Source: Paractinoplanes lichenicola (lineage in GTDB: Bacteria; Actinomycetota; Actinomycetes; Mycobacteriales; Micromonosporaceae). Taken from it: a stretch of 64,000 nucleotides of DNA. The stretch's first letter is position 1. The number at the start of each line of letters is the position of its first letter. This document shows, piece after piece, positions 2,724 through 31,762 of this stretch. The stretch spans positions 124,001 to 188,000 of the forward strand of contig NZ_JAENHO010000009.1 of NCBI RefSeq assembly GCF_016785085.1. Direction: 5' to 3'. The translations under genes and the position numbers were made by a program. The notes beneath the pieces are model-generated. The model was given only the letters and a program-made list of their open reading frames with translations, was not told the DNA's origin and did not search any database.

Positions 2724-3392
2724 ATGACGCAGCCGGAGTCGCTCGCACAGTTGCTGAACGGGCGGCGCGCCGCGATCGACGCGACCCTGCCGACCGTCGG
2801 GTTCGTGGCCGGTTGGCTGGTCCTCGGCCAGTCGATCATCGCCGGCGCGATCGTGGCCGTCGTCGTCGCGCTGGCGATCTCGGCGTGGCGGCTCCGCAAA
2901 GGGGACAAGCCGCGCGCGGTCGTGATCGGCCTGCTCGGCGTGTGTGTGGCCGCGCTGATCGCGCTCTACACCGGCAACGCGGCCGACTTCTTCCTGATCC
3001 AGCTGTTCAGCAACGCGGCCAGCGCCCTGGCCTGGGCGGTCAGCATCGTGATCCGGTGGCCGCTGCTCGGGCTCGTGGTCGGCGGCGTGCTCGGGCAGAA
3101 GACCCGCTGGCGGCGCGACCCGGCGCTACTGCGCTCGTACGGGTTGGCCAGCTGGGTTTGGGTGCTGCAATACGTCGTACGGGTGGCGGTCTTTCTGCCC
3201 CTGTACGCCGCCGGCCAGGTCTTCGCCCTCGGTGTCATGCGCGTCGCCCTGACCTGGCCGCTGGTCGCCGCATGCCTGGCCGTGAGCTGGTGGGTCATCC
3301 GCCGCACGCTGCCGCCCGGCCACCCCGGCCTGCGCCACCCGGTGACCTCAGTAGTGCCGGATCCCCTTGGTGAGGGTTCGCGCCCAGCCTGA
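2724..3392 (+). CDS. DUF3159 family membrane protein
   Basis: A 222-residue polytopic membrane protein with about six hydrophobic segments, matching the DUF3159 family of actinobacteria (for example TVGFVAGWLVLGQSI near the N-terminus and GQKTRWRRDPALLRSYG in the centre). Its function is unknown. ATG 2724 is used; a TTG at 2718 in the same frame is better spaced from GGAGG (2706-2710) and could be the true start. The iron-box-like operator directly upstream suggests expression under iron limitation and a possible role in metal or siderophore handling, which is inference. The 3' end overlaps the convergent TetR gene by 45 bases. Confidence 0.8.
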   Translation: MTQPESLAQLLNGRRAAIDATLPTVGFVAGWLVLGQSIIAGAIVAVVVALAISAWRLRKGDKPRAVVIGLLGVCVAALIALYTGNAADFFLIQLFSNAASALAWAVSIVIRWPLLGLVVGGVLGQKTRWRRDPALLRSYGLASWVWVLQYVVRVAVFLPLYAAGQVFALGVMRVALTWPLVAACLAVSWWVIRRTLPPGHPGLRHPVTSVVPDPLGEGSRPA

Positions 3393-3869
3393 CTCGTCGT
3401 GCAGCACGCCCAGCGCCACGACGAAATGGCACAGCTGCCCCCGGGCGAAGAACTGCTGAACGTCGTCGTCGGAAGCGCCCGACTGCTGCTTCACGTGCTC
3501 GACCAGGCGGCCCTGCGCGGCCTGCAACTCGTGCCGGACCGACTCGTCGTCGCAGGCCGCGAGCGCCTGAATCTGGATCATCATGAGCTCGCGGCTGGTG
3601 ATCAGTTGGGCGTACTGATCGGCCATGCCGTCGAGCGTGGTGGCGGTGAGCGCCCCGATGATCTGCTCGAAGCAGTCGTGCAGGACGGTGATGAACAGCG
3701 CCTGCTTCGTGCCGAAAAGCCGGAAGACGTACCCCTCGGAGATGCCCGCACCGGCGGCGATCGTCTTGGTCGACGTGCCGTGATAGCCGGTGCGAGCGAA
3801 CGCGTCGATCGCCGCCTGCATGACATCGGCGCGGCGGACGTTGGCGGTGGAGCGTACGCGAGGGGGCAT
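3348..3869 (-). CDS. TetR/AcrR family transcriptional regulator
   Basis: A 173-residue TetR-type repressor. The N-terminal helix-turn-helix is clear (TIAAGAGISEGYVFRLFG), followed by an all-helical ligand-binding domain. ATG 3869 begins MPPRVRSTANVRRADVMQAA, typical for the family; longer upstream frames run into the cupin gene. It lies 10 bases downstream of the cupin gene on the same strand, so the two are likely co-transcribed. Five copies of a palindrome containing GTGAGTACTCAC beyond the cupin gene are the obvious candidate operators, giving an autoregulated cupin-TetR unit. The inducer is unknown. Confidence 0.88.
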   Translation of the reverse strand: MPPRVRSTANVRRADVMQAAIDAFARTGYHGTSTKTIAAGAGISEGYVFRLFGTKQALFITVLHDCFEQIIGALTATTLDGMADQYAQLITSRELMMIQIQALAACDDESVRHELQAAQGRLVEHVKQQSGASDDDVQQFFARGQLCHFVVALGVLHDESGWARTLTKGIRHY

Positions 3870-3879
3870 TCGCGAGATT

Positions 3880-4413
3880 CTAGAGGCGACGCGGTTCCGG
3901 CTCCACAAACTCCCACCCCATCGCCTCGCCACCCTTGAGCAACTCCTCGGGCGAGGGGTTCCGCGTCTCGTGGGTCGGCATCGAGGGGCTGGTCGCGGGC
4001 TCACCCATGTCCTCGAAGAACTTCTCGAACCCGGCCGGCGTGACCATGCAAAAACCGCGGCCACGCTTCGACCGTACGAAGATGGAATGCGGGGTGGCCT
4101 GCGGAATCCACACCGTCGACCCGGGCGTGACCAGGTGCACGGTGTCGTTGACGAAGACCTCCCACTCGCCCTCGGTGATGAAGAAGAGCTCGCTCTCGTT
4201 GGCGTGCCGGTGCACCGGGGCCTGCCAGCCGTGGGGGACGTCGCACTGGAAGAACGAGAGGACGCCCTTGGTGTCGGCGGCCTTGGCCTTGAAGGTGATC
4301 AGCGCGCCGGCGAACCAGGTCATCGAGCCTTCGTCGGGCCCCAGCATGTAGCCGCTGGGATCGGCCCCGGGCACGGGAGTCCCATTGTGCGGCGCTCGGT
4401 AGTCGAACGACAT
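3880..4413 (-). CDS. cupin-domain protein (quercetin 2,3-dioxygenase-like)
   Basis: A 177-residue cytoplasmic protein with one cupin barrel. The metal-binding motif reads PVHRHANESELFFITEGEWE, followed by the second motif PQATPHSIFVRS. Such proteins bind a divalent metal through His/Glu and act as dioxygenases, isomerases or small-molecule sensors; the substrate here cannot be told. The ribosome binding site GGAGG lies 7 bases before ATG 4413. It is the first gene of an operon with the TetR regulator. The most proximal operator palindrome (4428-4451) overlaps its promoter or leader region, so repression by the neighbour is likely. Confidence 0.82.
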   Translation of the reverse strand: MSFDYRAPHNGTPVPGADPSGYMLGPDEGSMTWFAGALITFKAKAADTKGVLSFFQCDVPHGWQAPVHRHANESELFFITEGEWEVFVNDTVHLVTPGSTVWIPQATPHSIFVRSKRGRGFCMVTPAGFEKFFEDMGEPATSPSMPTHETRNPSPEELLKGGEAMGWEFVEPEPRRL

Positions 4414-4427
4414 GACACCCTCCAGTT

Positions 4428-4451
4428 ATGTAAGTGAGTACTCACATACAT
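4428..4451. promoter_or_regulatory. operator palindrome copy 1 (GTGAGTACTCAC core)
   Basis: A 24-base palindrome with one mismatched pair, core GTGAGTACTCAC at 4434-4445. It lies 14 bases upstream of the cupin start, where a bound TetR protein would block transcription. Confidence 0.75.
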
Positions 4452-4499
4452 CTCCGGCCGGGGTAAGCCCAAACGTGTCGATCGATGGTTGTGTGCCTA

Positions 4500-4519
4500 G
4501 TAAGTGAGTACTCACGTAC
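4500..4519. promoter_or_regulatory. operator palindrome copy 2
   Basis: The same 12-base core at 4504-4515, with matching outer bases GTA/TAC. The centre lies 70 bases from copy 1. Confidence 0.7.
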
Positions 4520-4723
4520 CGCGCATCCGAGAGCGCCGACCGGCGCGTAGCCGGGGCCGGCGTTCTTTTAGGACGCCGCGACCGGTGCCCGCTGCTGCTT
4601 GCCGTCCACTGCGGCCGGGGCCGCTGCGGCTCGCTGCCGCTCGGATCCGGCCAGCTGCGGCTCGCTGCCCGCTTCGGCCCGCCGCCGCTCGCCGTCCCGC
4701 TACGGTCCGCCGGTCCTGACGGT

Positions 4724-4739
4724 AAGTGAGTACTCACAT
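4724..4739. promoter_or_regulatory. operator palindrome copy 3
   Basis: The same 12-base core at 4726-4737, with fewer conserved flanking bases. It starts the first of two roughly 115-base imperfect direct repeats. Confidence 0.7.
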
Positions 4740-4840
4740 CGGCTCTGCGGGTTGTAGCGGTCGATGGGGCGAGTTGGGCTTCGTTGAGAGGGATGCCGTC
4801 TGGTTTGGCCCGGTCGGCGCATCCGTCGGCCTTCGCTTGT

Positions 4841-4856
4841 AAGTGAGTACTCACAT
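4841..4856. promoter_or_regulatory. operator palindrome copy 4
   Basis: The same 12-base core at 4843-4854, 117 bases from copy 3. The sequence after it (ACATCGGC...GCGGGTTGTA) repeats that after copy 3, so the operator and its flank were duplicated together. Confidence 0.7.
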
Positions 4857-4951
4857 CGGCCCGGCGGGTTGTAACGGTCGGCGGGGCGAGTGGGACGTCG
4901 TTTAGTGGGCGCCGTCTGCCTACTCGCCCGCCGCCCGCCGCCCGCCGCTTG

Positions 4952-4969
4952 TAAGTGAGTACTCACTTA
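4952..4969. promoter_or_regulatory. operator palindrome copy 5 (perfect 18-mer)
   Basis: TAAGTGAGTACTCACTTA is a perfect 18-base palindrome, the best copy. It lies 100 bases upstream of the CsbD gene and could place that gene under the same regulator. Confidence 0.72.
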
Positions 4970-5068
4970 AACGTCGGCGGTCGGTGAGTTCGGACACCGC
5001 GATCAATGGTTGCCGTTTGGCAAGTACGGGTATCAGTAGTGCGTTGGCACGACGATGTGGAGGCTGTC

Positions 5069-5242
5069 ATGGCATTCGACGACAAGGTCGACAACAAGGC
5101 CGAAGAGGTTGGCGGCAAGGTCAAGGAGGGCGTCGGCCGCGCGACGGACGACGAGCAGCTCGAGGCTGAGGGCCGGGCCGACCAGAGCAAGTCGAAGCTC
5201 AAGCAGGCCGGCGAGAACATCAAGGACGCCTTCAAGTCCTGA
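5069..5242 (+). CDS. CsbD family stress-response protein
   Basis: A 57-residue, highly charged, Cys- and Trp-free protein with the CsbD pattern (FDDKVDNKAEEVGGKVKEGV, ending QAGENIKDAFKS). Family members are small, abundant, largely helical general-stress proteins of unknown mechanism. ATG 5069 is preceded by GTGGAGG with a 5-base spacer; a longer frame from 5006 adds non-family sequence and is rejected. The gene is monocistronic: it ends in a strong terminator at 5260. The operator 100 bases upstream suggests coupling to the TetR circuit. Confidence 0.88.
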   Translation: MAFDDKVDNKAEEVGGKVKEGVGRATDDEQLEAEGRADQSKSKLKQAGENIKDAFKS

Positions 5243-5259
5243 GCTCGCTGAGAACGACC

Positions 5260-5292
5260 AGGCCCCGGCCCGCGATCAAGCGGCCGGGGCCT
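5260..5292 (+). terminator. intrinsic-type hairpin after CsbD gene
   Basis: An 11-bp perfect stem (AGGCCCCGGCC / GGCCGGGGCCT) with an 11-base loop starts 17 bases after the CsbD stop. Bases AGAACG and CGTTCT outside extend the pairing. There is no U-tract, as is usual in actinomycetes. Confidence 0.75.
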
Positions 5293-5300
5293 CGTTCTGC

Positions 5301-5419
5301 GCGAGTAAGCACGAGAAGCGAGCAGGCGCGAGTAGCGAGCAGGCGCGAGTAGCGAGCAGGCGCGAGTAGCGAGCAGGCGTGAAAAACGAGCAGGCGTGAA
5401 AAACGAGCGGGCGCGGGCG
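5301..5419. repeat. 17-bp tandem array, seven units
   Basis: Seven consecutive 17-base units (consensus GCGAGCAGGCGCGAGTA) fill the gap between the CsbD terminator and the end of the convergent SnoaL-like gene. Units 2-4 are identical and the outer ones have diverged. No coding potential. Confidence 0.85.
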
Positions 5420-5420
5420 A

Positions 5421-5786
5421 TCAGGCTGCCGGGGCCTCGTTCACGATCGTGTAGAGCTTGACCACCACGTCGTTCTCGACGAGCAGGATGTCCACGCCGG
5501 TGACGACCGCGGGCGCGTCGGCGGGGCCTAGTTCCCAGGCCAGCATCGCGAGGTTGCCCACCGTCTGCACCGGGCCGGCCGGGCGGAAGACGAAACCCGG
5601 GGTCCGGTCGAGCAGTTTCTGTGCCTTGGCGTCGAGCGCGTCGCGGCCGGTCAGTTCTTCCTCGGAGTCGGTGAATACGACGTTCTCGGCGTACGTCTCG
5701 GCGATGACCGCGGCCCGCGCCTGCGGGTCACGCTCCCCGAAGACGCGCAGCAGGTTGTTGGTGGCGAGTTCCGTCAGGCGATCCAT
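5421..5786 (-). CDS. SnoaL-like / NTF2-fold protein
   Basis: A 121-residue single-domain protein with the pattern of SnoaL-like NTF2 folds: an N-terminal helical region (LTELATNNLLRVFGERD), then AAVIAETYAENVVFTD and a C-terminal sheet ending LLVENDVVVKLYTIVNE. Members include polyketide cyclases, isomerases and ligand-binding stress proteins; the substrate is not evident. It faces the CsbD gene and has no close co-directional neighbour. Its last codons share a 26-base near-repeat with the CsbD terminator (5273-5298). Confidence 0.75.
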   Translation of the reverse strand: MDRLTELATNNLLRVFGERDPQARAAVIAETYAENVVFTDSEEELTGRDALDAKAQKLLDRTPGFVFRPAGPVQTVGNLAMLAWELGPADAPAVVTGVDILLVENDVVVKLYTIVNEAPAA

Positions 5787-5870
5787 GATCCTGATCGTGG
5801 CAGCGTTCCGCTGATCGCGCCGTCGCCTGCGTCACGGTTCGGGGTGGCGTCGCGGTGGTAACCCGGACCT

Positions 5871-6524
5871 ATGAAGCGTTTTCTCGCGATCCTCGCCGCG
5901 CCCGCCCTCCTAGTGGTCGGCTGCGGCACGACCGGCGCCACGAATGGCTCAGCGCCGGAGCCGAGCAAAGCAGTGCGAACTGCGCCGGAGTCGAGCGAGG
6001 CTGTGCGAAGTGCGCCGGGCCCGAGCGAAGCGGCGGAAAATGCGCTGGAGTCGAGCAAAGCGTCGCAAAGTACAACCGGGGCAGGGGGTGGTCCGGCCCG
6101 ATGTCACACCGCGGATCTCGACGTCACAACCGGCGTTGGCGGCGCCGCGGCCGGCACGCACTCGATCAATCTCCTCTTCACCAACAAGACCGGCAAAACC
6201 TGTTCCCTGTACGGCTATCCGGGCGTCTCCTGGGTCGCAGGCGACAACGGCACGCAGGTCAACGCGGCGTTCGCCCGTGAGCCCGGTGAGACGGCCGCGA
6301 AGACGATCACGGTGAGGCCCGGCGCCAAGGCGTACGTGCTTCTGCTCTGGCCGTATTACGCCAACTGCGACTCCGCGAAGTGCCGCCCGGCGCAGGTCCG
6401 GGGTTACCGTGTGTATCCGCCCGACGAGACCGCGGCGATCTTCGTGAGCGATCAGCAGACGGTCTGCGCGGCGCCGGGCGTCGGCACCGGCCGCGTCCGC
6501 CCGGTTGCCGCCGCGGCAAAGTGA
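5871..6524 (+). CDS. DUF4232 secreted lipoprotein
   Basis: A 217-residue lipoprotein. The signal peptide MKRFLAILAAPALLVVGC ends in a lipobox with lipidated Cys18. Residues about 27-70 hold four imperfect 10-residue repeats (pattern SAPEPSKAVR) made by 30-base DNA repeats, acting as a hydrophilic spacer. The C-terminal domain matches DUF4232 (CHTADLDVTTG, LLFTNKTGKTCSLYGYPGVS, final Cys pair), common in actinobacterial lipoproteins and of unknown function. It is expected to be anchored on the outer face of the membrane. A 21-base tandem array starts at its stop codon. Confidence 0.85.
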   Translation: MKRFLAILAAPALLVVGCGTTGATNGSAPEPSKAVRTAPESSEAVRSAPGPSEAAENALESSKASQSTTGAGGGPARCHTADLDVTTGVGGAAAGTHSINLLFTNKTGKTCSLYGYPGVSWVAGDNGTQVNAAFAREPGETAAKTITVRPGAKAYVLLLWPYYANCDSAKCRPAQVRGYRVYPPDETAAIFVSDQQTVCAAPGVGTGRVRPVAAAAK

Positions 6525-6668
6525 CCGACCGCCGCGGCGAGGTGACCGGCCGCCGCGGCGAGGTGACCGACCGCCCCGGGGAAGTGATGGACCGCCCCGG
6601 GGAAGTGATGGACCGCCGCGGCCAAGTGAACGACCGGCGCCGTGAAAGTGACTGACCGGCGCCGCGGA
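6500..6668. repeat. 21-bp tandem array starting at the DUF4232 stop codon
   Basis: Seven degenerate 21-base units (consensus GTGACCGACCGCCGCGGCGAG) run from 6521, with a related half unit just before. The first unit contains the TGA stop of the DUF4232 gene. No coding sequence follows until 6852. Confidence 0.8.
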
Positions 6669-6746
6669 GTGGTAGGTTACTGAAGAGTTAATTAGGGCTG
6701 ATTTGGCCAGCATAAATACAGACTCGCCCGTTCGTACCACTCCGCG
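6663..6746. promoter_or_regulatory. AT-rich promoter region bracketed by a 12-bp inverted repeat
   Basis: CGCGGAGTGGTA (6663-6674) and TACCACTCCGCG (6735-6746) are perfect inverted copies 60 bases apart. The spacer is far more AT-rich than its surroundings (GAGTTAATTAGGG, CATAAATACAG). It lies about 105 bases upstream of the DUF3455 gene and probably holds its promoter. Confidence 0.5.
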
Positions 6747-6851
6747 TGGGACGAACGGACCTCATTGATGCTCGTCGTGATCTGCCGGGGCCGGAGATCC
6801 GTGTTGGCGGGCGAAGGGGCGACGCTCAGCGCCCCCAAATGAGGAGATCTC

Positions 6852-7433
6852 ATGCTCAACACGAAGCGTTCTCGTGTCCGCGCCGCCGCTGGGGTGGGGA
6901 TGGCGGCCGTGATCGCCACCGTCGGCGCCGTGACCTTCAACGCCTCAGCGGCGGAGCAGGCGCCCGTCGCGCCCGCGGCCGTCGGGCCCGAAGCACGCGC
7001 GGTCTCCATCCCGGGCATCCCCGCGGCCATCAAGCCGCCCAAGGGTTCCAAGCCGATCGGAGCCTACATCGTCGCGAGCGGCACCCAGACTTACACCTGC
7101 AGCACCAACCTCAAGTACGAGGGCGCCTCCACCCCCGAGGCGCAGCTGATCGGCACCGGCGGCCGCGTCCACCACTTCGGCGGCCCGAGCTGGCAGTCCA
7201 CCCGCGACGGTTCCAAGGTCACCGCCAAGAAGGAGGCCGAGAGCCCGCGCACCGGCACGATCCCGGAGCTGCTGCTCAAGGTCGACACCTCCACCGGTGG
7301 CGGCGTGCTCGGCAAGGCCACCTACATCAGCCGCCTGCTCACCTCGGGCGGCACCGCGCCCACCGAGGCCTGCACCGCGGGCCAGACCAAGGCCGTCAAG
7401 TACGGCGCGGTCTACGTCTTCTGGACCAACTGA
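6852..7433 (+). CDS. DUF3455 domain secreted protein
   Basis: A 193-residue protein with a Sec signal peptide (N-terminal RSRVR, a hydrophobic core, then an ASA-A cleavage region near residue 33). The mature part matches DUF3455: GAYIVASGTQTYTC, then the aromatic HHFGGPSWQS and a C-terminal AVKYGAVYVFW. Function is unknown; the domain is found in secreted fungal and bacterial proteins. GAGGAG lies 6 bases upstream of ATG 6852. It has its own promoter region and terminator, so it is monocistronic. Confidence 0.85.
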   Translation: MLNTKRSRVRAAAGVGMAAVIATVGAVTFNASAAEQAPVAPAAVGPEARAVSIPGIPAAIKPPKGSKPIGAYIVASGTQTYTCSTNLKYEGASTPEAQLIGTGGRVHHFGGPSWQSTRDGSKVTAKKEAESPRTGTIPELLLKVDTSTGGGVLGKATYISRLLTSGGTAPTEACTAGQTKAVKYGAVYVFWTN

Positions 7434-25591: not shown

Positions 25592-26317
25592 TCACTCCAC
25601 GTGCGCGGCCGCGGCCAGGATCGCGTCGATGGCGGCCTGCGGCTGCGACACCATCGAGACGTGCGACGCCGAGACGTCGGTGATCTTCGCGCCGGCCCGC
25701 TCGGCCATCGACCGCTGCGTGTCGGGCGGGATCACCCGGTCCTCGAGGCCGATGACCGCCCAGCTCGGCAACGTCTTCCAGACCGCCGTGACCGACGGGG
25801 CGGTGTTGGCGCTCAAGGTGATCGGCCGCTGGCCCGCGGCGATCAGCCACCGGTCGGCCTCGGGCAGATCTTGGGCGAAGGCGGTGTGCACGGTCTCGGG
25901 TTTGAGGAACGCCTCGACGTCGCCCTCGGGCCCGCCGGGATAGCCCGCCAGGTCGAGCACCGTGGTGGGATCGGGCACGGCCAGCGCCGACCCCGAGTCG
26001 CCGAGGATCCCGAACGTGGTCTCGCCCTCGTCGGGGATGAACGCGTCCACATAGACCAGCGCCCGCACGTCGCCGCCCCCGGTCGCGGCGTTCGTGATGA
26101 CAAAACCGCCGTACGAGTGGCCGGCCAGCACGACCGGCCCGCTCGTGCGCTGGGCCAGGAACGAGGAGATGTACGCGGCGTCACCGGCGGGGCCGCGCAA
26201 CAGGTTGGTCGGCGCGAGGACCGTGAACCCCTGACCCTGCAGGGCGGAGGCGACGGCATTCCAGCTCGAGGCGTCGGCCCAGGCGCCGTGTACCAGAACG
26301 ATCGTAGGTTTCGACAT
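25592..26317 (-). CDS. alpha/beta hydrolase
   Basis: A 241-residue hydrolase of the salicylate-esterase/EstC-like type. The oxyanion motif is [11 protein letters not shown], the nucleophile elbow is AGHSYGG, an acid Asp lies in [19 protein letters not shown] and the His in [14 protein letters not shown] 26317 is preceded by AGGGGGA with 6 bases spacing. Substrates are likely small esters or lactones. It lies 23 bases downstream of the histidine kinase 26341, so it may be the last gene of that two-component operon. Confidence 0.85.
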
Positions 26318-26340
26318 GACTGTCCCCCTGAACGTCGTAG

Positions 26341-27429
26341 TCACCGGTGATCGTAGGAGCCCGGCAGCGCCGCCTCCACCACCCAGCCACCGCCTGGGAG
26401 CGTTCCCGCGTCGAGCCGGCCGCCCTGCTCCCGTACGCGTTCCCGCAGCCCATCCAGGCCGTGACCGGTGCCGCCGAGCTCCAGCCGCGCCTGCGTCGAC
26501 GGGTCGTTTTCCACGCGTACGGATAAACGCCGTCCTTCCCCCGTGACAAGAACCCGCACCGGGGCTCCGGGCGCGTGCCGCAGCGCGTTGGTCAGGCTCT
26601 CCTGCACCACCCGGAAGGCGACGTGCGCGACCGGCGCCGGCACCCCGTCCCGGTCGCCGGTGAACCGGCACGTCACGTCGAGACCGCTGCGAGCCGCGCG
26701 GGTCACGACCTCCTCGATCAACGACAGGTCCGGACCGCCGACCTCGGTGCCGCCCAACAGGTCGATCAGGCGCTTGAGGTCGGCCTGCCCCTGCCGCGCC
26801 GACTCGGCGATCGCGCCGAACGTCTCCCGGGCCCCCGCCGGATCGCGCTCGACGAGCCGCTGCCCGGCCGCGGCCTGGATGATCATCACGCTGATCGCGT
26901 GGCCGATGATGTCGTGCAGCTCGGCCGCTATCCGCGCGCGTTCGTGCCGCAGCGCCAGCTCGGCGAACAGTTCGCGCTCCTCCTCGAGCTCGCGCCCGCG
27001 CTCGGCCAGCTGCCGGGCGGCCTCGCGACGCAGGCGCAGCACCGTGCCCGCGAAGAAGGCCGGCACGCTGAACATGGCCAGCCCGATCGACGGGTCCACC
27101 AACGACCACAACGCCCAGAGGTACGCCACCAGCCCCGCTCCGGCCAGCCAGGCCGCCCGGCCGCCGAAGGCCAGGGCCGCCACCCCGGCCAGCAGGGCCA
27201 TGATGACCAGGGCCGGATCGGGGAACCAGCCGCGCCCGCCGAGCACCGCCGCCAGCAGCCACAACGAGCCACCCACGACCGTCACGACCTGCGGATGCTT
27301 GCGCCACCAGAGCAGCGTGAGCCCGCTGACGGTCAGCAGCACGATGGGCGGCGCCCACTGCCCGGCAACGGTCGCCGGCACTACGACCACCGCGATGACC
27401 AGCGCCGCGATCGCCGCCCGCTCCAGCAT
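26341..27429 (-). CDS. sensor histidine kinase, intact partner of a two-gene kinase pair
   Basis: A 362-residue NarL-type kinase. Residues 1-135 hold five or six membrane segments. HisKA_3 reads HERARIAAELHDIIGHAIS with H172; the ATPase domain has an N-box in VVQESLTNALRHAPG and a G-box in GGTGHGLDGLRER, all conserved. ATG 27429 follows the stop of the degenerate kinase 27430 with no gap. The likely response regulator is the divergent 29207. It probably works as a heterodimer or in competition with its degenerate neighbour. Confidence 0.87.
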   Translation of the reverse strand: MLERAAIAALVIAVVVVPATVAGQWAPPIVLLTVSGLTLLWWRKHPQVVTVVGGSLWLLAAVLGGRGWFPDPALVIMALLAGVAALAFGGRAAWLAGAGLVAYLWALWSLVDPSIGLAMFSVPAFFAGTVLRLRREAARQLAERGRELEEERELFAELALRHERARIAAELHDIIGHAISVMIIQAAAGQRLVERDPAGARETFGAIAESARQGQADLKRLIDLLGGTEVGGPDLSLIEEVVTRAARSGLDVTCRFTGDRDGVPAPVAHVAFRVVQESLTNALRHAPGAPVRVLVTGEGRRLSVRVENDPSTQARLELGGTGHGLDGLRERVREQGGRLDAGTLPGGGWVVEAALPGSYDHR

Positions 27430-28545
27430 CTACATCACCGGCAGCAGCGCCACGACCCGCGCCCGGCCCCGCGCCACCCGCACGTCGACCGACCCGCCCA
27501 GCAGCCGCGCCCGCTCCCGGGCCCGGGTCACCGCCGCGCGTACTTCGCCGCCCCGGCCGACCGCGCCGTTCACCCGGATCTCCAAAGCGTCGTTGTCGAA
27601 CCGGATCGCCACCTCGAGCCCGTCGAGCACGCCGACCAGATATTCGACGATCCGATAGGCCGACAGCTCCACCGTCGCCGGCAACGACCGCGGATCGCCG
27701 GTCACGGTCAGGCAGGAATCCAGGGCCAGCAGCGTTTCGAGATGCGCGACGCTCGGCGCCGGCGACAGGTCGACCTCCCCGCCGCGCAGCAGGCCCACGA
27801 TCTCGCGCATGTCGTCCATCGTCCGGCGGCTGTCACTCTCGATCGACTCGAGCAGCTGCCGGGCCCCCGCCGGTTCGAGCCCGTCGGCCGACTCGGCGGC
27901 CCGCCCGAGCTGGTCGAGCCGTTCCTGCAACAACTCGTCGAGCTGGCGGGAGAGGCGGGCCCGGTCGTCGGCCACCAGCAGCGCGGCCCGCTCGTCGCGC
28001 AACTGCCGCAACTCCTCGTCACGGCTGCGCAATTGCCGGTTGAGCATGCTGCGCTGCCGGGCCGCCCGGCCCACGCCGAACACGATCAGCGCGACCGGCA
28101 CGGCCAGGATCAACGCGCCCGGCCCGGCGGACGAGTCGACCACCAGGACGGCGCAACACAGCAACACATTCAAGCCAAAAGCCAACCAGGCCCTCGTACG
28201 GGGGTAGGAAAGCGCCCCGAGGAACGTCAAGGTGAACACGAGTGGCAGCCCCGCGCCGCACCTGGTGACCCAGCCGAAGAGCAGGTCGTGCAGAACCATG
28301 ACGACCAGCGCGACGCCGGTGACGGCCAGGACGCTGCGACGCCACCACAGCACCGGGATCGTGGCCGCGGCGAACAGCGGAACCATCCACACCGAATGCG
28401 AGTCGACCGGGTGCACCGCGGCGCCGGCGGCGATGTCGCGGGCCATCTGCGCGTCGTCGACCACCACCATGAAGACCATGAGCAGAACCCCGAGCGCCGT
28501 CAGGCACCCCGCCAGGAGCCAATCGCCGATCCGGATCCTGCTCAT
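27430..28545 (-). CDS. degenerate (pseudo-)histidine kinase with paralogous sensor domain
   Basis: A 371-residue protein built like a NarL-type kinase. Residues 1-160 form four or five membrane segments with the loop FGWVTRCGAGLPL, shared with 28560. The dimerisation region aligns with active kinases (DRARLSRQLDELLQ), but the phospho-acceptor His is Asp at position 203. The ATPase part has lost the N-box (EYLVGVLDG in place of QESLTNALRHA) and G-boxes. It keeps kinase-like folding length, suggesting a regulatory pseudo-kinase. It abuts 26341 (TAG next to ATG) and lies 14 bases after 28560. Confidence 0.78.
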   Translation of the reverse strand: MSRIRIGDWLLAGCLTALGVLLMVFMVVVDDAQMARDIAAGAAVHPVDSHSVWMVPLFAAATIPVLWWRRSVLAVTGVALVVMVLHDLLFGWVTRCGAGLPLVFTLTFLGALSYPRTRAWLAFGLNVLLCCAVLVVDSSAGPGALILAVPVALIVFGVGRAARQRSMLNRQLRSRDEELRQLRDERAALLVADDRARLSRQLDELLQERLDQLGRAAESADGLEPAGARQLLESIESDSRRTMDDMREIVGLLRGGEVDLSPAPSVAHLETLLALDSCLTVTGDPRSLPATVELSAYRIVEYLVGVLDGLEVAIRFDNDALEIRVNGAVGRGGEVRAAVTRARERARLLGGSVDVRVARGRARVVALLPVM

Positions 28546-28559
28546 CGCCGCACCCCTCT

Positions 28560-29069
28560 TCAGACTGTCGCGTGCTCGGCGGCCGGCTTCGTGGTCCTTC
28601 GATTCTGGACCGCGAGGCCGATGCCGTAGAAGAGGGCGGACCCCGGAAGAGCGATCTCGAGACCACCCGGCAGCCCGCCGATCGACGAGTCCCGCACGAG
28701 CACGAGCAGCAACAAGGCGACGATCCCGGCCGCCCCGATCGCCTGGTTCCGGACGTTACCGGCGAACCGGGCCACCGCGTACGAGAGGGCGAAGGCCAGC
28801 GGCAGCCCGGCGCCGCACCGGGTCACCCAGCCGAACGCCACCACGTGGATCGCCATCGCCGCCACCGTCACCCCGACGACGGCCAGAACGTTTCGCCGCC
28901 GCCACAGGATCGGCGCGGTGGCCAGCAGAAACACCGGCAGCATGACCCACGACGTGGTGGACAGCGGATGGGCCAGAGACTCGTCGTCGGCCCCCATCAC
29001 GTTCGCCACCATGAGCAGCGCCCCGGCCGCCGTCAGCAGCGCCGCCACAATCCAATCGGTCCTCTTCAT
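28560..29069 (-). CDS. sensor-only membrane protein, paralogue of the pseudo-kinase sensor domain
   Basis: A 169-residue protein with four or five membrane segments and no kinase module. It is clearly related to residues 1-165 of the gene at 27430: both contain FGWVTRCGAGLPL, a tryptophan near the N-terminus (TDWIVAALLTAAGALLMV), a preserved RR(N/S)VLAV and a late VRDSS/VVDSS. ATG 29069 lies 6 bases after AAAGGGGAAC, and the frame extended beyond it has no support. The ribosome binding site is part of an inverted repeat at 29071-29099. It leads the operon 28560-27430-26341. Confidence 0.8.
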   Translation of the reverse strand: MKRTDWIVAALLTAAGALLMVANVMGADDESLAHPLSTTSWVMLPVFLLATAPILWRRRNVLAVVGVTVAAMAIHVVAFGWVTRCGAGLPLAFALSYAVARFAGNVRNQAIGAAGIVALLLLVLVRDSSIGGLPGGLEIALPGSALFYGIGLAVQNRRTTKPAAEHATV

Positions 29070-29070
29070 G

Positions 29071-29099
29071 ACCGTTCCCCTTTCGTTTCCCGGAACGGT
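29071..29099 (-). promoter_or_regulatory. 8-bp inverted repeat enclosing the ribosome binding site of 28560
   Basis: ACCGTTCC (29071-29078) and GGAACGGT (29092-29099) are perfect inverted copies with a 13-base spacer, directly upstream of ATG 29069. In the mRNA the stem would mask GGGGAAC; in DNA it could be the site of the divergent response regulator. Confidence 0.55.
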
Positions 29100-29206
29100 A
29101 GGGATCCGCGGGGGTAGCCCTCGTCTTCCTCGAGGACGATGTCCCGGCCCCGCATCCTCCGCAGGGATGACCCGCCGTCGTCCGCCGGTTCGGCACAATC
29201 GCAGGT

Positions 29207-29863
29207 GTGATCCGGGTGCTGATAGCCGACGACCAGACCCTGGTCCGCACGGGCTTCCGCGTCATCCTGGAGGCCGAAGGCGACATCACGGTGGTGGCCG
29301 AGGCGGGCACGGGGACGGAGGCGATCCGCCAGTCCCAGCTCACGAAGCCCGACGTGATCCTGATGGACATCCGCATGCCGGAGCTGGACGGACTGGCCGC
29401 CACCGAAGAGATCCTGCGCCACCCCGACCCACCCACGATCGTCGTCCTGACCACGTTCGACCAGAACGAGTACGTCTACCGCGCGTTGCGCGTCGGCGCC
29501 GCGGGATTTCTGCTCAAGGACGCGCCGTCGACCCGCCTCCTGGCCGCGGTGCGGGCGGCGGCAACGGGGGACTCGCTGATCGAGCCGTCGATCACGCGTC
29601 GGCTGGTCGAACGTTTCGCCTCCCCGGTGGTGCCGGCCGGCCCGCCGGCGGAGTTGGCCGCCTTGACCGAGCGCGAGCGGGATGTGTTGCGCTCCATGTC
29701 GCGGGGGTTGTCCAACGCCGAGATCGCGGCCGAGTTGGTGGTGGCCGAAACAACGGTCAAAACCCACGTGGCTCGCATCCTGACCAAACTCAACCTGCGC
29801 GATCGGGTGCAGGCGGTGGTCCTCGCCTACGAGACAGGCTTCGCCACCCGCCGCGACCACTAG
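29207..29863 (+). CDS. NarL/FixJ-type response regulator
   Basis: A 218-residue regulator: receiver domain with D8/D9, phospho-acceptor D54 (ILMDIRMPE) and Lys in FLLKDAPS; LuxR helix-turn-helix LTERERDVLRSMSRGLSNAE through ETTVKTHVARI. The GTG start at 29207 reads VIRVLIADDQ. It is divergent from the 28560-26341 operon with a 137-base gap holding an inverted repeat, and is the natural partner of the intact kinase. It is followed by about 1.07 kb without genes. Confidence 0.9.
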   Translation: MIRVLIADDQTLVRTGFRVILEAEGDITVVAEAGTGTEAIRQSQLTKPDVILMDIRMPELDGLAATEEILRHPDPPTIVVLTTFDQNEYVYRALRVGAAGFLLKDAPSTRLLAAVRAAATGDSLIEPSITRRLVERFASPVVPAGPPAELAALTERERDVLRSMSRGLSNAEIAAELVVAETTVKTHVARILTKLNLRDRVQAVVLAYETGFATRRDH

Positions 29864-30330
29864 CCTCTACGCGTTGCGTTTGTCAGCCGCCGCGCCCACC
29901 TGCTGCTGCCACCATCCGCTACCGCCGTTTGCCACCCGCCGCGGTCGCCTGCCGCCACCCGCTGCCATCCGCCGTGGCAACCTGCGGTCACCACCCCGCT
30001 GCGGTCACCACCCACCACTCGCCGTGGCCACCTGCCACGCTGCCACCCGCCCGGCGCTGCCACTACCGGCCACCCGCAACCTGCTGTGACCCGCCGCTGC
30101 GGCGGCCGCCATCTCGCCGCGCCGTCGCGGCCGCCGCCCTGGGCCGCCGCCCCTGGGCCGCCGCCCTGGGCCGCCGCCCTGGGCCGCCGCCCTGGGCCGC
30201 CGCCCCTGGGCCGCCGCCCCTGGGCCGCCGCCCCTGCGCCGCCGCCCCTGCGCCGCCGCCCCTGCGCCGCCACCCTGCGCCGCCACCCCGCCGCGGCCAA
30301 CAAGGTGGGATCGCGCGCCCCTGGTGGGCG
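29864..30330. repeat. low-complexity region with a 14-15-bp GC-rich tandem array
   Basis: After the response regulator stop, irregular short repeats of CCGCC/CACCCG type run to about 30100. From about 30105 to 30295 a tighter array of roughly eleven 14-15-base units (GGGCCGCCGCCCCT and variants) follows. No gene is visible on either strand; apparent frames are Pro/Arg/Ala runs. Confidence 0.75.
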
Positions 30331-30334
30331 TCGA

Positions 30335-30755
30335 TGGTTCCTCGTGGTGGCTTGCGTGCGCTCGGTGGGCGTCAATGGTCACCCGTGGCGGCACGCCTGC
30401 GCTCGGTGGGCTGATGAGTTTCTTTGGTTGCGGTCAGGCGGTGGTTGCGGTGACTACTCGCGGCCGTAGTTTCGCCTGCGGTGGGTGCAACTCATCATGC
30501 TGTGGTCAAGGTTGAGTCCTGGGTAGGCGGGCCGCTCAGCCGCGGGATTCCGTTTGTCTGGGTCAAGGTCTTTGGCCTGGACCACCGAATGATGAGTTTT
30601 GCTCAGCCGCGGCCTGAAAACGGCATCGAGGGATCACCGCGACCACTATCAAAGCGTGACCAAAGGAATCATTGAACCTCTTCGCGCGGGCGCGCCGCCA
30701 AGCGTGACCGTTGACGCCCACCGAGCGCATGCAGCCCCGCAGGCCGCCACGGGAC
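30335..30755. repeat. imperfect inverted repeat, arms about 165-175 bp
   Basis: The left arm (about 30335-30510) matches the reverse complement of the right arm (about 30574-30755). The best block is 26 bases with one mismatch: 30357-30382 (TGCGCTCGGTGGGCGTCAAT...) against 30704-30729. ACTCATCAT occurs at 30490-30498 and inverted at 30591-30599. The spacer is about 60-90 bases. No transposase or coding frame is present. Confidence 0.7.
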
Positions 30756-30937
30756 ACCAATGGGCCCCCCGAGCGTGCGGCCGCCGAGTCGCTTCAGGTC
30801 ACCCGAGACTGACCGGCGTCCGGTGTTGGCTGTGACAGGCGTACGGGAATTGGTTGTTCATCACGTGTTCTGGTCCGTGGGCGCGCTCCCGGCATAGCTT
30901 GAGGTGGCACAGCACCAACCGCGAGGGGGAGTCCCAC

Positions 30938-31762
30938 ATGCCTTACGTGACCACGAACGACGGCGTCGAGATCTTCTACAAGGACTGGGGGACCGGTCAG
31001 CCTATCGTGTTCAGTCACGGGTGGCCGCTGTCCGCCGACGACTGGGACACGCAGCTGCTGTTCTTCGTTCAGAACGGTTACCGGGTCATCGCGCACGACC
31101 GCCGGGGTCACGGCCGGTCCACTCAGGTCAGCGACGGCCACGACATGGACCACTACGCCGATGACCTGGCCGCCCTGACCGCGCATCTCGACCTGCACGA
31201 CGCTATTCACGTCGGGCACTCGACCGGTGGCGGCGAGGTGGCGCACTACATCGCGCGGCACGGTGAGAGCCGGGTGGCGCGGGGTGTGCTGATCAGCGCC
31301 GTCCCGCCGCTCATGGTGCAGACCGAGGCCAACCCGGGTGGCCTGCCCAAGAGCGTGTTCGACGACCTGCAGGCGCAGCTGGCCGCGAACCGGTCGGAGT
31401 TCTACCGGGCGCTGCCGTCGGGCCCGTTCTACGGCTTCAACCGTGAGGGTGTCGAGTCGTCCGAGGCGATCATCGAGAACTGGTGGCGTCAGGGCATGAT
31501 GGGCGGCGCGAAGGCCCACTACGACGGCATTGTCGCGTTCAGCCAGACCGACTTCACCGAGGACCTCAAGAAGATCACCGTCCCGGTTCTGGTCATGCAC
31601 GGCGACGACGACCAGATCGTGCCGTATGCGGACTCTGCCCCGCTTTCCGCCGCGCTGCTGAAGAACGGCACGCTCAAGACGTACGCCGGTTTCCCGCACG
31701 GCATGCCCACCACCCAGGCCGACACCATCAACGCCGACCTGCTGGAGTGGCTGAAGTCCTGA
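30938..31762 (+). CDS. alpha/beta hydrolase, non-heme chloroperoxidase type
   Basis: A 274-residue cytoplasmic hydrolase. The nucleophile S95 lies in [10 protein letters not shown], the oxyanion region is [12 protein letters not shown], the acid is in [12 protein letters not shown], and the His is in FPHGMPTTQ. These features match cofactor-free haloperoxidase/esterase enzymes, which act as esterases or perhydrolases. ATG 30938 is preceded by GAGGGGGA with 7 bases spacing; the upstream frame is rejected. It follows the gene-free repeat region and has its own promoter in 30830-30920. Confidence 0.9.

What the first reader, a model, noticed from the sequence alone, without database searches (positions are those of the whole stretch)
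26341..29863. Two-component locus with a sensor-only paralogue, a pseudo-kinase and an intact kinase
28560-29069 is a stand-alone membrane sensor; 27430-28545 has the same sensor (shared FGWVTRCGAGLPL) fused to a kinase-like region whose phospho-acceptor His is Asp and whose N-box and G-boxes are lost; 26341-27429 is a fully conserved kinase; 29207 is the divergent regulator. Spacings of 14 and 0 bases point to one operon. This suggests a signalling complex in which a catalytically dead subunit and a free sensor domain tune one active kinase. I know of no described system with this composition.
Basis: partly seen in the sequence, partly recalled or inferred. Interest (0 to 1): 0.78.

Follow-up and report, generated by a model that had tools for sequence, protein, structure and literature searches.

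The report
Dead-kinase partner conserved in sensing operon
Soil actinobacteria of several families carry a four-gene signalling cassette in which a working sensor kinase travels with a sister protein that has lost the kinase machinery and with a free copy of that sister's membrane sensor, which suggests that a dead kinase and a loose sensor were built in as control parts.

Summary
Regulator D (29207-29863, +) is divergent from C-B-A (29069 to 26341, -): free six-helix sensor, pseudo-kinase, intact HisKA_3 kinase. The same order holds in 33 of 34 loci found (Actinoplanes/Paractinoplanes, Kribbella, Marmoricola, Aeromicrobium, Intrasporangiaceae and others). B's phospho-acceptor position is Asp in 33 of 34 and Glu in 1, never His. 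Its G-box is gone in 32 of 32 loci aligned; its N-box Asn is gone in 28 of 32 but kept in 4, and the N-box Glu is kept in all 32. A keeps His and Asn in 32 of 32. B is under the same purifying selection as A (median dN/dS 0.23 each). At the thresholds used, A and B were found in exactly the same genomes (15 of 354; 3 of 394). Two palindromes 31-33 bp apart lie between D and C. B is not a broken gene; most likely it is an obligatory pseudo-kinase partner of A, and C a modulator of B's sensor. Physical contact and sign of control are inferred. The principle is known (RocA-CovS, FasB-FasC, DivL, RetS-GacS); I found no description of this composition. New variant of a known kind.

The parts
26341..27429 (-). 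Gene A: intact HisKA_3 sensor kinase (H172, D173...H177, E277, N281, G320/G322/G324)
   Evidence: Pfam HisKA_3 58 bits and HATPase_c 31.9 bits, above cut-offs; the named residues identical in 32 of 32 loci
27430..28545 (-). Gene B: six-helix membrane sensor fused to a degenerate DHp-CA module; D203 at the phospho-acceptor position, no N-box Asn in the window copy, no G-box (pseudo-kinase)
   Evidence: 32-locus alignments: Asp 31, Glu 1; model pLDDT 78.7, CA domain like DosS/DesK
28560..29069 (-). Gene C: free six-helix sensor, paralogue of the sensor of B, no kinase part
   Evidence: hhalign E 4e-45 to B; model with six helices, pLDDT 87.0, pTM 0.83
29207..29863 (+). Gene D: NarL-type response regulator (receiver + LuxR/GerE HTH), divergent
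   Evidence: Pfam Response_reg 95 bits, GerE 71 bits; D8, D9, D54, T82, K104 identical in 32 of 32
29153..29170 (-). Candidate operator 1 (palindrome TCATCCCTGCGGAGGATG)
   Evidence: conserved block in the D-C intergenic alignment of 32 loci; exact place; binding not tested
29122..29139 (-). Candidate operator 2 (palindrome TCGTCCTCGAGGAAGACG), 31 bp from operator 1
   Evidence: strict tandem pair matched once in the own genome, here; binding not tested
28258..28260 (-). Codon of the only invariant cysteine of B (C96, in FGWVTRCG), at the start of helix 4, predicted outer end
   Evidence: Cys in 32 of 32; helix limits from the model; side of the membrane inferred
28815..28817 (-). Codon of the only invariant cysteine of C (C85, same motif)
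   Evidence: Cys in 32 of 32; helix limits from the model; side of the membrane inferred

Best explanation
The locus encodes a two-component system with two extra input subunits. A autophosphorylates and phosphorylates (or dephosphorylates) D. B cannot by the canonical chemistry carry a phosphoryl group on His, and very likely cannot make or remove one; it is a dedicated pseudo-kinase that joins A through its stalk/DHp helices, as an A:B heterodimer or by pairing an A dimer with a B dimer. It passes the state of its own membrane sensor to A and so sets A's kinase/phosphatase balance. C is a free copy of that sensor domain which pairs with B's sensor (or competes for its ligand) and so titrates or resets B. 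The input is likely read on the outer face, where B and C share an Arg-Cys-Gly motif and an Asp loop. D~P binds two palindromes about three helical turns apart between D and C and controls both transcripts. Shown here: composition, conservation, loss of motifs, purifying selection, co-occurrence, tandem palindromes. Inferred: physical contacts, direction of control, the role of the cysteine, and that D is what binds the palindromes.
For: Same gene order in 32 of 32 distinct loci plus L127; only L128 deviates. A orthologues (limit E 1e-60) and B orthologues (limit E 1e-25; weakest kept 1.2e-89) lie in the same 15 of 354 family genomes and the same 3 of 394 class genomes (limits 1e-40 for B, 1e-60 for A). 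B's dN/dS equals A's (medians 0.233 and 0.231, 14 chosen pairs). B is one clade on a long stem (quick tree). B's CA fold is kept in the model (DosS Z 15.2 over 109 residues; DesK, VraS). C shares the sensor with B and not detectably with A. No neighbour family in more than 6 of 32 loci, so the four genes are the unit. Tandem palindromes in the D-C gap. Precedents for a pseudo-kinase working with a kinase: PMC7028121 and PMC12675982 (passages).
Against: No interaction, phosphorylation or expression data. Four of 32 copies of B keep the N-box Asn, and all 32 keep the N-box Glu, so some remnant of the ATP site may still matter. In L128 (G407) there is no C; A, B and D suffice there, or an unrelated hydrophobic ORF upstream of B does C's work. 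In one genome (L023) C carries an in-frame stop at codon 41 while B, A and D remain open, so C may be dispensable or the read wrong. A and B diverge strongly (29% identity), so heterodimerisation cannot be assumed. The signal is unknown.
Confidence: 0.57

Rival explanations
1. B is a repurposed transmitter that reads the phosphorylation state of D (as DivL reads DivK~P) and feeds this back to A; the sensor is secondary.
For: DivL lacks kinase and phosphatase activity and binds DivK~P through the docking interface (PMC4211667, abstract and section headings). B's DHp is the best conserved part of B (0.737 mean pairwise identity, against 0.594 for the sensor and 0.697 for CA).
Against: B's first DHp helix around D203 differs from A's (LDGLLQERL against LHDIVGHAIS), so docking of D in the same way is not evident. 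B's membrane sensor is also conserved and is duplicated as C.
Confidence: 0.15
2. B and C form a module of their own (an anti-kinase): B sequesters A in inactive heterodimers and C releases A by pairing with B; control is by stoichiometry more than by ligand.
For: C is the first gene of the presumed operon, and B and C share the sensor; RetS inhibits GacS autophosphorylation as one of three mechanisms (PMC5992135, abstract).
Against: RocA and FasC act positively (passages); nothing in the sequence tells the sign.
Confidence: 0.2
3. B is a decaying or functionless relic kept by linkage.
For: Key catalytic motifs are gone or degraded.
Against: Open in 32 of 32 loci; dN/dS equal to A's; the dead CA domain is as conserved as the live one (0.697 and 0.682 mean pairwise identity); in these searches never missing where A is present.
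Confidence: 0.02
4. B still binds nucleotide or has catalysis by other means (another phospho-acceptor, an HPt-like or phosphatase role).
For: The N-box Glu is invariant and 4 of 32 copies keep the N-box Asn; the acidic residue at the His position is kept without exception (33 Asp, 1 Glu of 34); RcsD shows that an inactive kinase domain can sit in a phosphorelay (PMC13317618, passages).
Against: No HPt domain in the Pfam scan; the G-box is gone in 32 of 32; A's Asp173 and His177, which by recall form the phosphatase motif of HisKA_3, are Gly and Glu in most copies of B (29 and 24 of 32).
Confidence: 0.06

Closest known systems
FasBCA of group A Streptococcus (PMC12675982, passages read)
   Same: Two kinase-like six-helix membrane proteins and one regulator in one operon; one of the two is proposed to be a pseudokinase; they interact with each other and not with themselves in two-hybrid tests.
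   Different: FasC keeps the likely phosphorylated His (H246) and only its CA domain is dispensable; here B has no His. No free sensor gene described; output is a small RNA; ComE-like regulator site.
RocA with CovRS, group A Streptococcus (PMC7028121, passages read)
   Same: Membrane pseudo-kinase with six putative helices modulates an active kinase and co-precipitates with it.
   Different: RocA is described as an accessory protein of CovR/S and keeps a dispensable His (H246); no free copy of the sensor is described in the passages read.
DivL-CckA, Caulobacter (PMC4211667, abstract and headings; PMC9491836, discussion passage)
   Same: Pseudo-kinase controls another kinase; DHp-CA region kept without activity.
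   Different: His replaced by Tyr (recalled; PDB 4q20 is titled tyrosine kinase DivL); PAS sensors; part of a cell-cycle phosphorelay.
RetS-GacS, Pseudomonas (PMC5992135, abstract)
   Same: One sensor kinase controls another by direct contact.
   [quoted passage not shown] no free sensor described in the abstract.
AbrC1/C2/C3, Streptomyces coelicolor (PMC3098853, passages read)
   Different: Described as two histidine kinases; no dead kinase and no free sensor described in the passages read.
RcsC-RcsD-RcsB (PMC13317618, passages read)
   Same: An inactive-kinase homologue with its own membrane part works beside an active kinase.
   Different: RcsD carries an Hpt domain that transfers phosphate; none was found in B.
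DesK-DesR, Bacillus subtilis
   Same: Among the closest solved HisKA_3 folds for B; membrane sensor coupled by a connecting two-helix coiled coil (PMC6879721, passages).
   Different: DesK is an active kinase/phosphatase.

Membership tests
HisKA_3 (NarX/DesK-type) histidine kinase, for A | HisKA_3 and HATPase_c profiles, phospho-acceptor His, N-box, G-box | tested here: met
   (both above cut-off); H172, E277, N281, G320, G322, G324 identical in 32 of 32
HisKA_3 histidine kinase, for B | phospho-acceptor His | tested here: not met
   Asp 31, Glu 1 of 32; Asp in L127 and L128
HisKA_3 histidine kinase, for B | N-box (Glu and Asn) of the ATP site | tested here: not met
   Glu kept in 32 of 32, but Asn kept in only 4 of 32 (L077, L079, L083, L084); Gly in the window copy
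HisKA_3 histidine kinase, for B | G-box of the ATP site and HATPase_c profile | tested here: not met
   A's G320 and G322 face a gap, G324 and G327 are replaced in 32 of 32; HATPase_c not among the 13 families hit by any of 32 members at E<=0.1
HisKA_3 histidine kinase, for B | DHp-CA fold and descent | tested here: met
   29 of 32 members hit HisKA_3 at E<=0.1, window copy below the curated score; DosS CA Z 15.2, rmsd 2.3, 109 aligned; hhalign to A E 1.6e-21
Pseudo-histidine kinase (functional class) | no kinase or phosphatase activity while modulating a partner kinase | not testable with these tools
   needs purified B, A and D
FasBC-like heterodimeric sensor pair | the two kinase-like subunits heterodimerise | not testable with these tools
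   no complex prediction available here
FasBC-like heterodimeric sensor pair | the pseudo-kinase subunit donates the phosphorylated His | tested here: not met
   B has Asp/Glu there
NarL-type response regulator, for D | receiver with phospho-Asp and GerE HTH | tested here: met
   D8, D9, D54, T82, K104 in 32 of 32
DUF7134 sensor domain (Pfam PF23539), for C | profile match above the curated score | tested here: not met
   window copy 16.7 bits against 27; 20 of 31 members match at E<=0.1, best 3.5e-5, their scores against the cut-off not shown
LiaFSR-type three-component system | accessory membrane protein of the LiaF family | not tested
   C is a paralogue of B's sensor; no LiaF family among the 7 listed in the Pfam scan of C, but no direct comparison was made

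The most novel reading that the evidence does not exclude
A three-subunit sensor kinase in which the pseudo-kinase carries a permanently acidic residue at the phospho-His position, so that it stands for a fixed phospho-like half of a kinase dimer, while B and the free sensor C form a thiol switch on the outer face through the single invariant cysteine of each (C96 and C85); the state of that switch decides whether A works as kinase or phosphatase. This would be a new way to build a sensor kinase: fixed-state subunit plus free sensor plus one live kinase.
Probability: 0.12. Interest if true: 0.82.

Novelty: new variant of a known kind. Interest (0 to 1): 0.62.

Why it matters
In the papers I saw, pseudo-kinases of the histidine type are few, and most still hold a His (RocA, FasC), act in another kind of network (DivL, RcsD) or arose in the laboratory (ChrS). 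Here a dead kinase, a live kinase and a free copy of the dead one's sensor are tied in one compact cassette conserved across several families, with no commonly shared neighbours. That makes it a small and portable system in which to ask how a dead subunit controls a live one, why an acidic residue replaced the His and was kept, and what a sensor domain does without an output. Natural variants are at hand for comparison: one Glu form, four copies that keep the N-box Asn, and one lineage without C.

Tried and rejected
Strain-specific broken gene: rejected by orthologues, dN/dS and co-occurrence. Recent duplication of A giving B: not supported; A and B are each one clade with long stems (1.12 and 1.67) and A falls on the side of the outgroup kinases (quick tree with long-branch warnings; 39 rows: 17 of 32 loci, and 5 outgroup kinases of 13 stretches tried, 8 dropped because my motif filter did not find a canonical His box). 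A shared sensor in A: no evidence. A neighbouring target gene: none shared by more than 6 of 32 loci (ORFs of 100 aa or more, E 1e-15, flanks of a few kb, a crude ORF caller whose clusters include antisense frames). 'N-box lost in all copies': I first took this from the printed alignment; one search showed Asn kept in 4 of 32 and Glu in 32 of 32, and the text was mended. I lowered the main confidence from 0.58 to 0.57 and raised the residual-catalysis rival from 0.05 to 0.06 for that reason. A regulon from the single palindrome: 62 matches with up to 1 mismatch in the own genome against 17 for the control; the excess may come from coding stretches of the TCGTCCTCGAGGCCGACG kind as well as from regulation (not tested), so I drew no regulon; 2 of the 4 exact matches lie outside the module and were not followed up. 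The two sites per locus were fitted by a script that takes the two best sites in each locus, without a shuffled control, so their presence is partly by construction; the constant spacing and the alignment are the evidence; the second site is weak in L032, L030 and L027. Tandem palindrome: 8 of 15 genomes have one match each, by position all between D and C; 7 of 15 have none. Plasmid spread: no match of B in PLSDB at E<=1e-20. Rv0600c/Rv0601c as a precedent (recalled): two papers listed, not read. Phrase searches for pseudo or heterodimeric histidine kinases gave 0 papers or papers that did not describe this system by title and abstract. The genome search scored only a few first-look candidates per genome (4 or 5; 8 in 65; 29 in 8), so very diverged copies could be missed.

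Rows set aside: 12 of 29 loci were taken as copies of loci because the contig lengths agree; C of L023 (in-frame stop) was left out of alignment A4 and A of L075 (frame break) out of A5; both are in the 32-row scripts, the stop as X. D of L025 and L032 showed split matches and were kept as their best piece. L127 and L128 are not in the 32-row counts and were read by eye.
Full report
What is there. The window lies in a 10.67 Mb genome in 35 contigs, close to Actinoplanes/Paractinoplanes by the named relatives. I call the genes A (26341-27429, -), B (27430-28545, -), C (28560-29069, -) and D (29207-29863, +). B stops where A starts, and 14 bases separate C from B. Across 32 loci the B-A gap is -4 to 41 bases in 30 of 32 (113 in L021; 284 in L075, where A has a frame break) and the C-B gap 4 to 53 in 32 of 32; A, B and C share a strand and D is divergent in 32 of 32.

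What each protein is. A passes the Pfam cut-offs for HisKA_3 and HATPase_c, and D those for Response_reg and GerE; B reaches only 17.3 of 24 bits for HisKA_3 and has no HATPase_c match; C gives only sub-threshold matches, the best to DUF7134. Profile-profile comparison shows B homologous to A through stalk, DHp and CA (E 1.6e-21) and C homologous to the sensor of B (E 4e-45). C against A gives nothing (probability 1.4). So C is a copy of B's sensor, not of A's membrane part.

The dead kinase is real and conserved. Orthologues of B were found in 13 of 67 genomes of the genus at E<=1e-30 and 15 of 354 of the family at E<=1e-25. The remaining 17 plus the 15 of the family make 32 distinct loci, in Actinoplanes/Paractinoplanes, a record titled Micromonospora, Kribbella, Marmoricola, Aeromicrobium, Phycicoccus and several MAGs. 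All 32 have D, then C-B-A divergent. At A's phospho-acceptor column all 32 have His; in B 31 have Asp and 1 (L032) Glu. A's Asp173 and His177 are invariant in A, while B has Gly in 29 and Glu in 24 of 32 there; by recall these positions form the phosphatase motif of HisKA_3, so B should lack that activity too.

The ATP site of B is degraded but not wiped out. In three joint alignments of A and B the N-box Glu (A E277, B E301) is kept in 32 of 32 copies of B. The N-box Asn (A N281) is Thr, Gly, Ala and others in 28 of 32 but Asn in 4 (L077, L079, L083, L084). Of the G-box, A's G320 and G322 face a gap and G324 and G327 are replaced in 32 of 32.

Two further loci came from a class-wide profile search (3 of 394 genomes, own included). 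L127 has all four genes in the same order. L128, from another family, has B-A-D on one strand and no C; another ORF with several hydrophobic stretches lies upstream of B and does not resemble C (hhalign probability 0.2). Its B is only about a third identical (hhalign 32%, E 1.6e-36) and still has Asp at the His position and the RCG motif. Over 34 loci: Asp 33, Glu 1, His 0. The acidic character is kept without exception.

Selection and history. Median dN/dS over 14 chosen pairs is 0.231 for A, 0.233 for B, 0.27 for C and 0.115 for D. Mean pairwise identity is 0.642 (A), 0.653 (B), 0.552 (C), 0.812 (D); B's dead CA domain (0.697) is as conserved as A's live one (0.682). In a quick tree of DHp-CA regions B is one clade on a long stem, and so is A; I read this as one old loss followed by constraint, but the tree carries long-branch warnings and no root. 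A orthologues at E<=1e-60 lie in exactly the 15 of 354 family genomes that hold B; in the class sample A and B are in the same 3 of 394, and C in 2 of those 3. No gene family in the flanks is shared by more than 6 of 32 loci. The four genes are thus the unit, patchily spread over several families, either by transfer or by much loss; I did not decide between these.

Structure. The model of B (pLDDT 78.7, pTM 0.50) has membrane helices, a long stalk and a CA domain that matches HisKA_3-type CA domains: DosS Z 15.2, rmsd 2.3, 109 aligned; DesK and VraS 13-14 (Foldseek; sequence profile also finds DesK, E 0.0013). The model of C is a six-helix bundle (pLDDT 87.0, pTM 0.83). Both models show one bridge residue in the loop before helix 4 (93 in B, 82 in C) and one in the loop after helix 5 (137 in B, 127 in C), as if the two loops pair; the partner is not given by the tool. 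B has one invariant cysteine (C96) and C one (C85), each in 32 of 32, at the start of helix 4; R95/R84, G97/G86, P101/P90 and D137/D127 are invariant too. From the positive charges of the alternate loops (my reading, not a topology program) this site faces outward. A's only invariant cysteine (C254) is in its CA domain.

Regulation. The D-C gap holds two copies of a palindrome, consensus about TCRTCCYYGMGGMNGACG, whose starts are 31-33 bp apart in 31 of 32 loci and 22 in L075 (the script takes the two best sites per locus, with no shuffled control, and the second site is weak in L032, L030 and L027; the plain alignment shows the same blocks). A strict tandem pattern occurs once in each of 8 of 15 carrier genomes, between D and C by position, and nowhere in the other 7; the reversed control pattern gave 0 in 15. 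Palindromes three helical turns apart between divergent genes fit a regulator that controls its own locus. That D binds them is inferred.

How it most likely works. A and D do the chemistry. B, without the His, is tied to A by a shared distribution, tight gene order and equal constraint; the simplest role is an allosteric partner that brings its own sensor to A. C, a free copy of that sensor, most likely pairs with B's sensor or competes for its input. The sign is open. RocA and FasC are positive partners (PMC7028121, PMC12675982, passages read), RetS a negative one (PMC5992135, abstract). In C. glutamicum an evolved ChrS pseudokinase raised output that depends on HrrS, and the native kinases, though not significantly the truncated one, heterodimerised in two-hybrid tests (PMC9491836, passages).

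What is known and what is not. The principle of a dead kinase controlling a live one is established (DivL, RocA, FasC, RetS as a related case, RcsD with an Hpt domain). New here, as far as I could find: the His is gone by natural replacement with an acidic residue kept in every copy seen, within a HisKA_3/NarL system, in one cassette with a free copy of the dead kinase's sensor, conserved across several families. Ten literature searches found no description of this composition; most subscription papers are not in that library.

Limits. No experiment; no complex prediction; C is broken in one genome and absent in one lineage; a remnant of the N-box persists; the signal is unknown.

Noticed in passing
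30129-30289: GC-rich 14-bp tandem array (11.9 copies, 94% matches; GGCCGCCGCCCCTG) downstream of D, flanked by two weaker arrays (29930-29992, 30323-30411).
   Followed up: no
L128 (G407:C62:11000-22000), B 4928-6022, A 3742-4920, D 3067-3732, all -: Divergent relative of the cassette: B-A-D on one strand, no C, a different hydrophobic ORF (6091-6855, -) upstream of B; the B copy still has Asp at the His position.
   Followed up: partly
L077, L079, L083, L084 (gene B): These four copies of B keep Asn at the N-box column beside the invariant Glu, while His and G-box are gone; possible intermediates or a partly kept nucleotide site.
   Followed up: partly
L023, 7242-7757 (+): C has an in-frame stop at codon 41 in this one genome (G001) while B, A and D stay open; either C was lost there or a sequencing error.
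   Followed up: no
L025 6553-7197, L032 9775-10423, L075 7795-8780: Matches to D (L025, L032) and A (L075) are split, apparently between frames, which suggests frame breaks or sequencing errors in single genomes.
   Followed up: no
G000:C1:200774-200791 (+) and G000:C31:35734-35751 (-): The two exact matches of the single palindrome outside the cassette in the own genome; what lies beside them was not looked at.
   Followed up: no
25592-26320 (-) and 30854-31762 (+): An alpha/beta-hydrolase-like gene (my reading of the sequence) on each side of the cassette; the one on the D side recurs near the cassette in 6 of 32 loci.
   Followed up: partly
26341-27429, residue C254: A has one invariant cysteine, in its CA domain (32 of 32), role unknown.
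   Followed up: no
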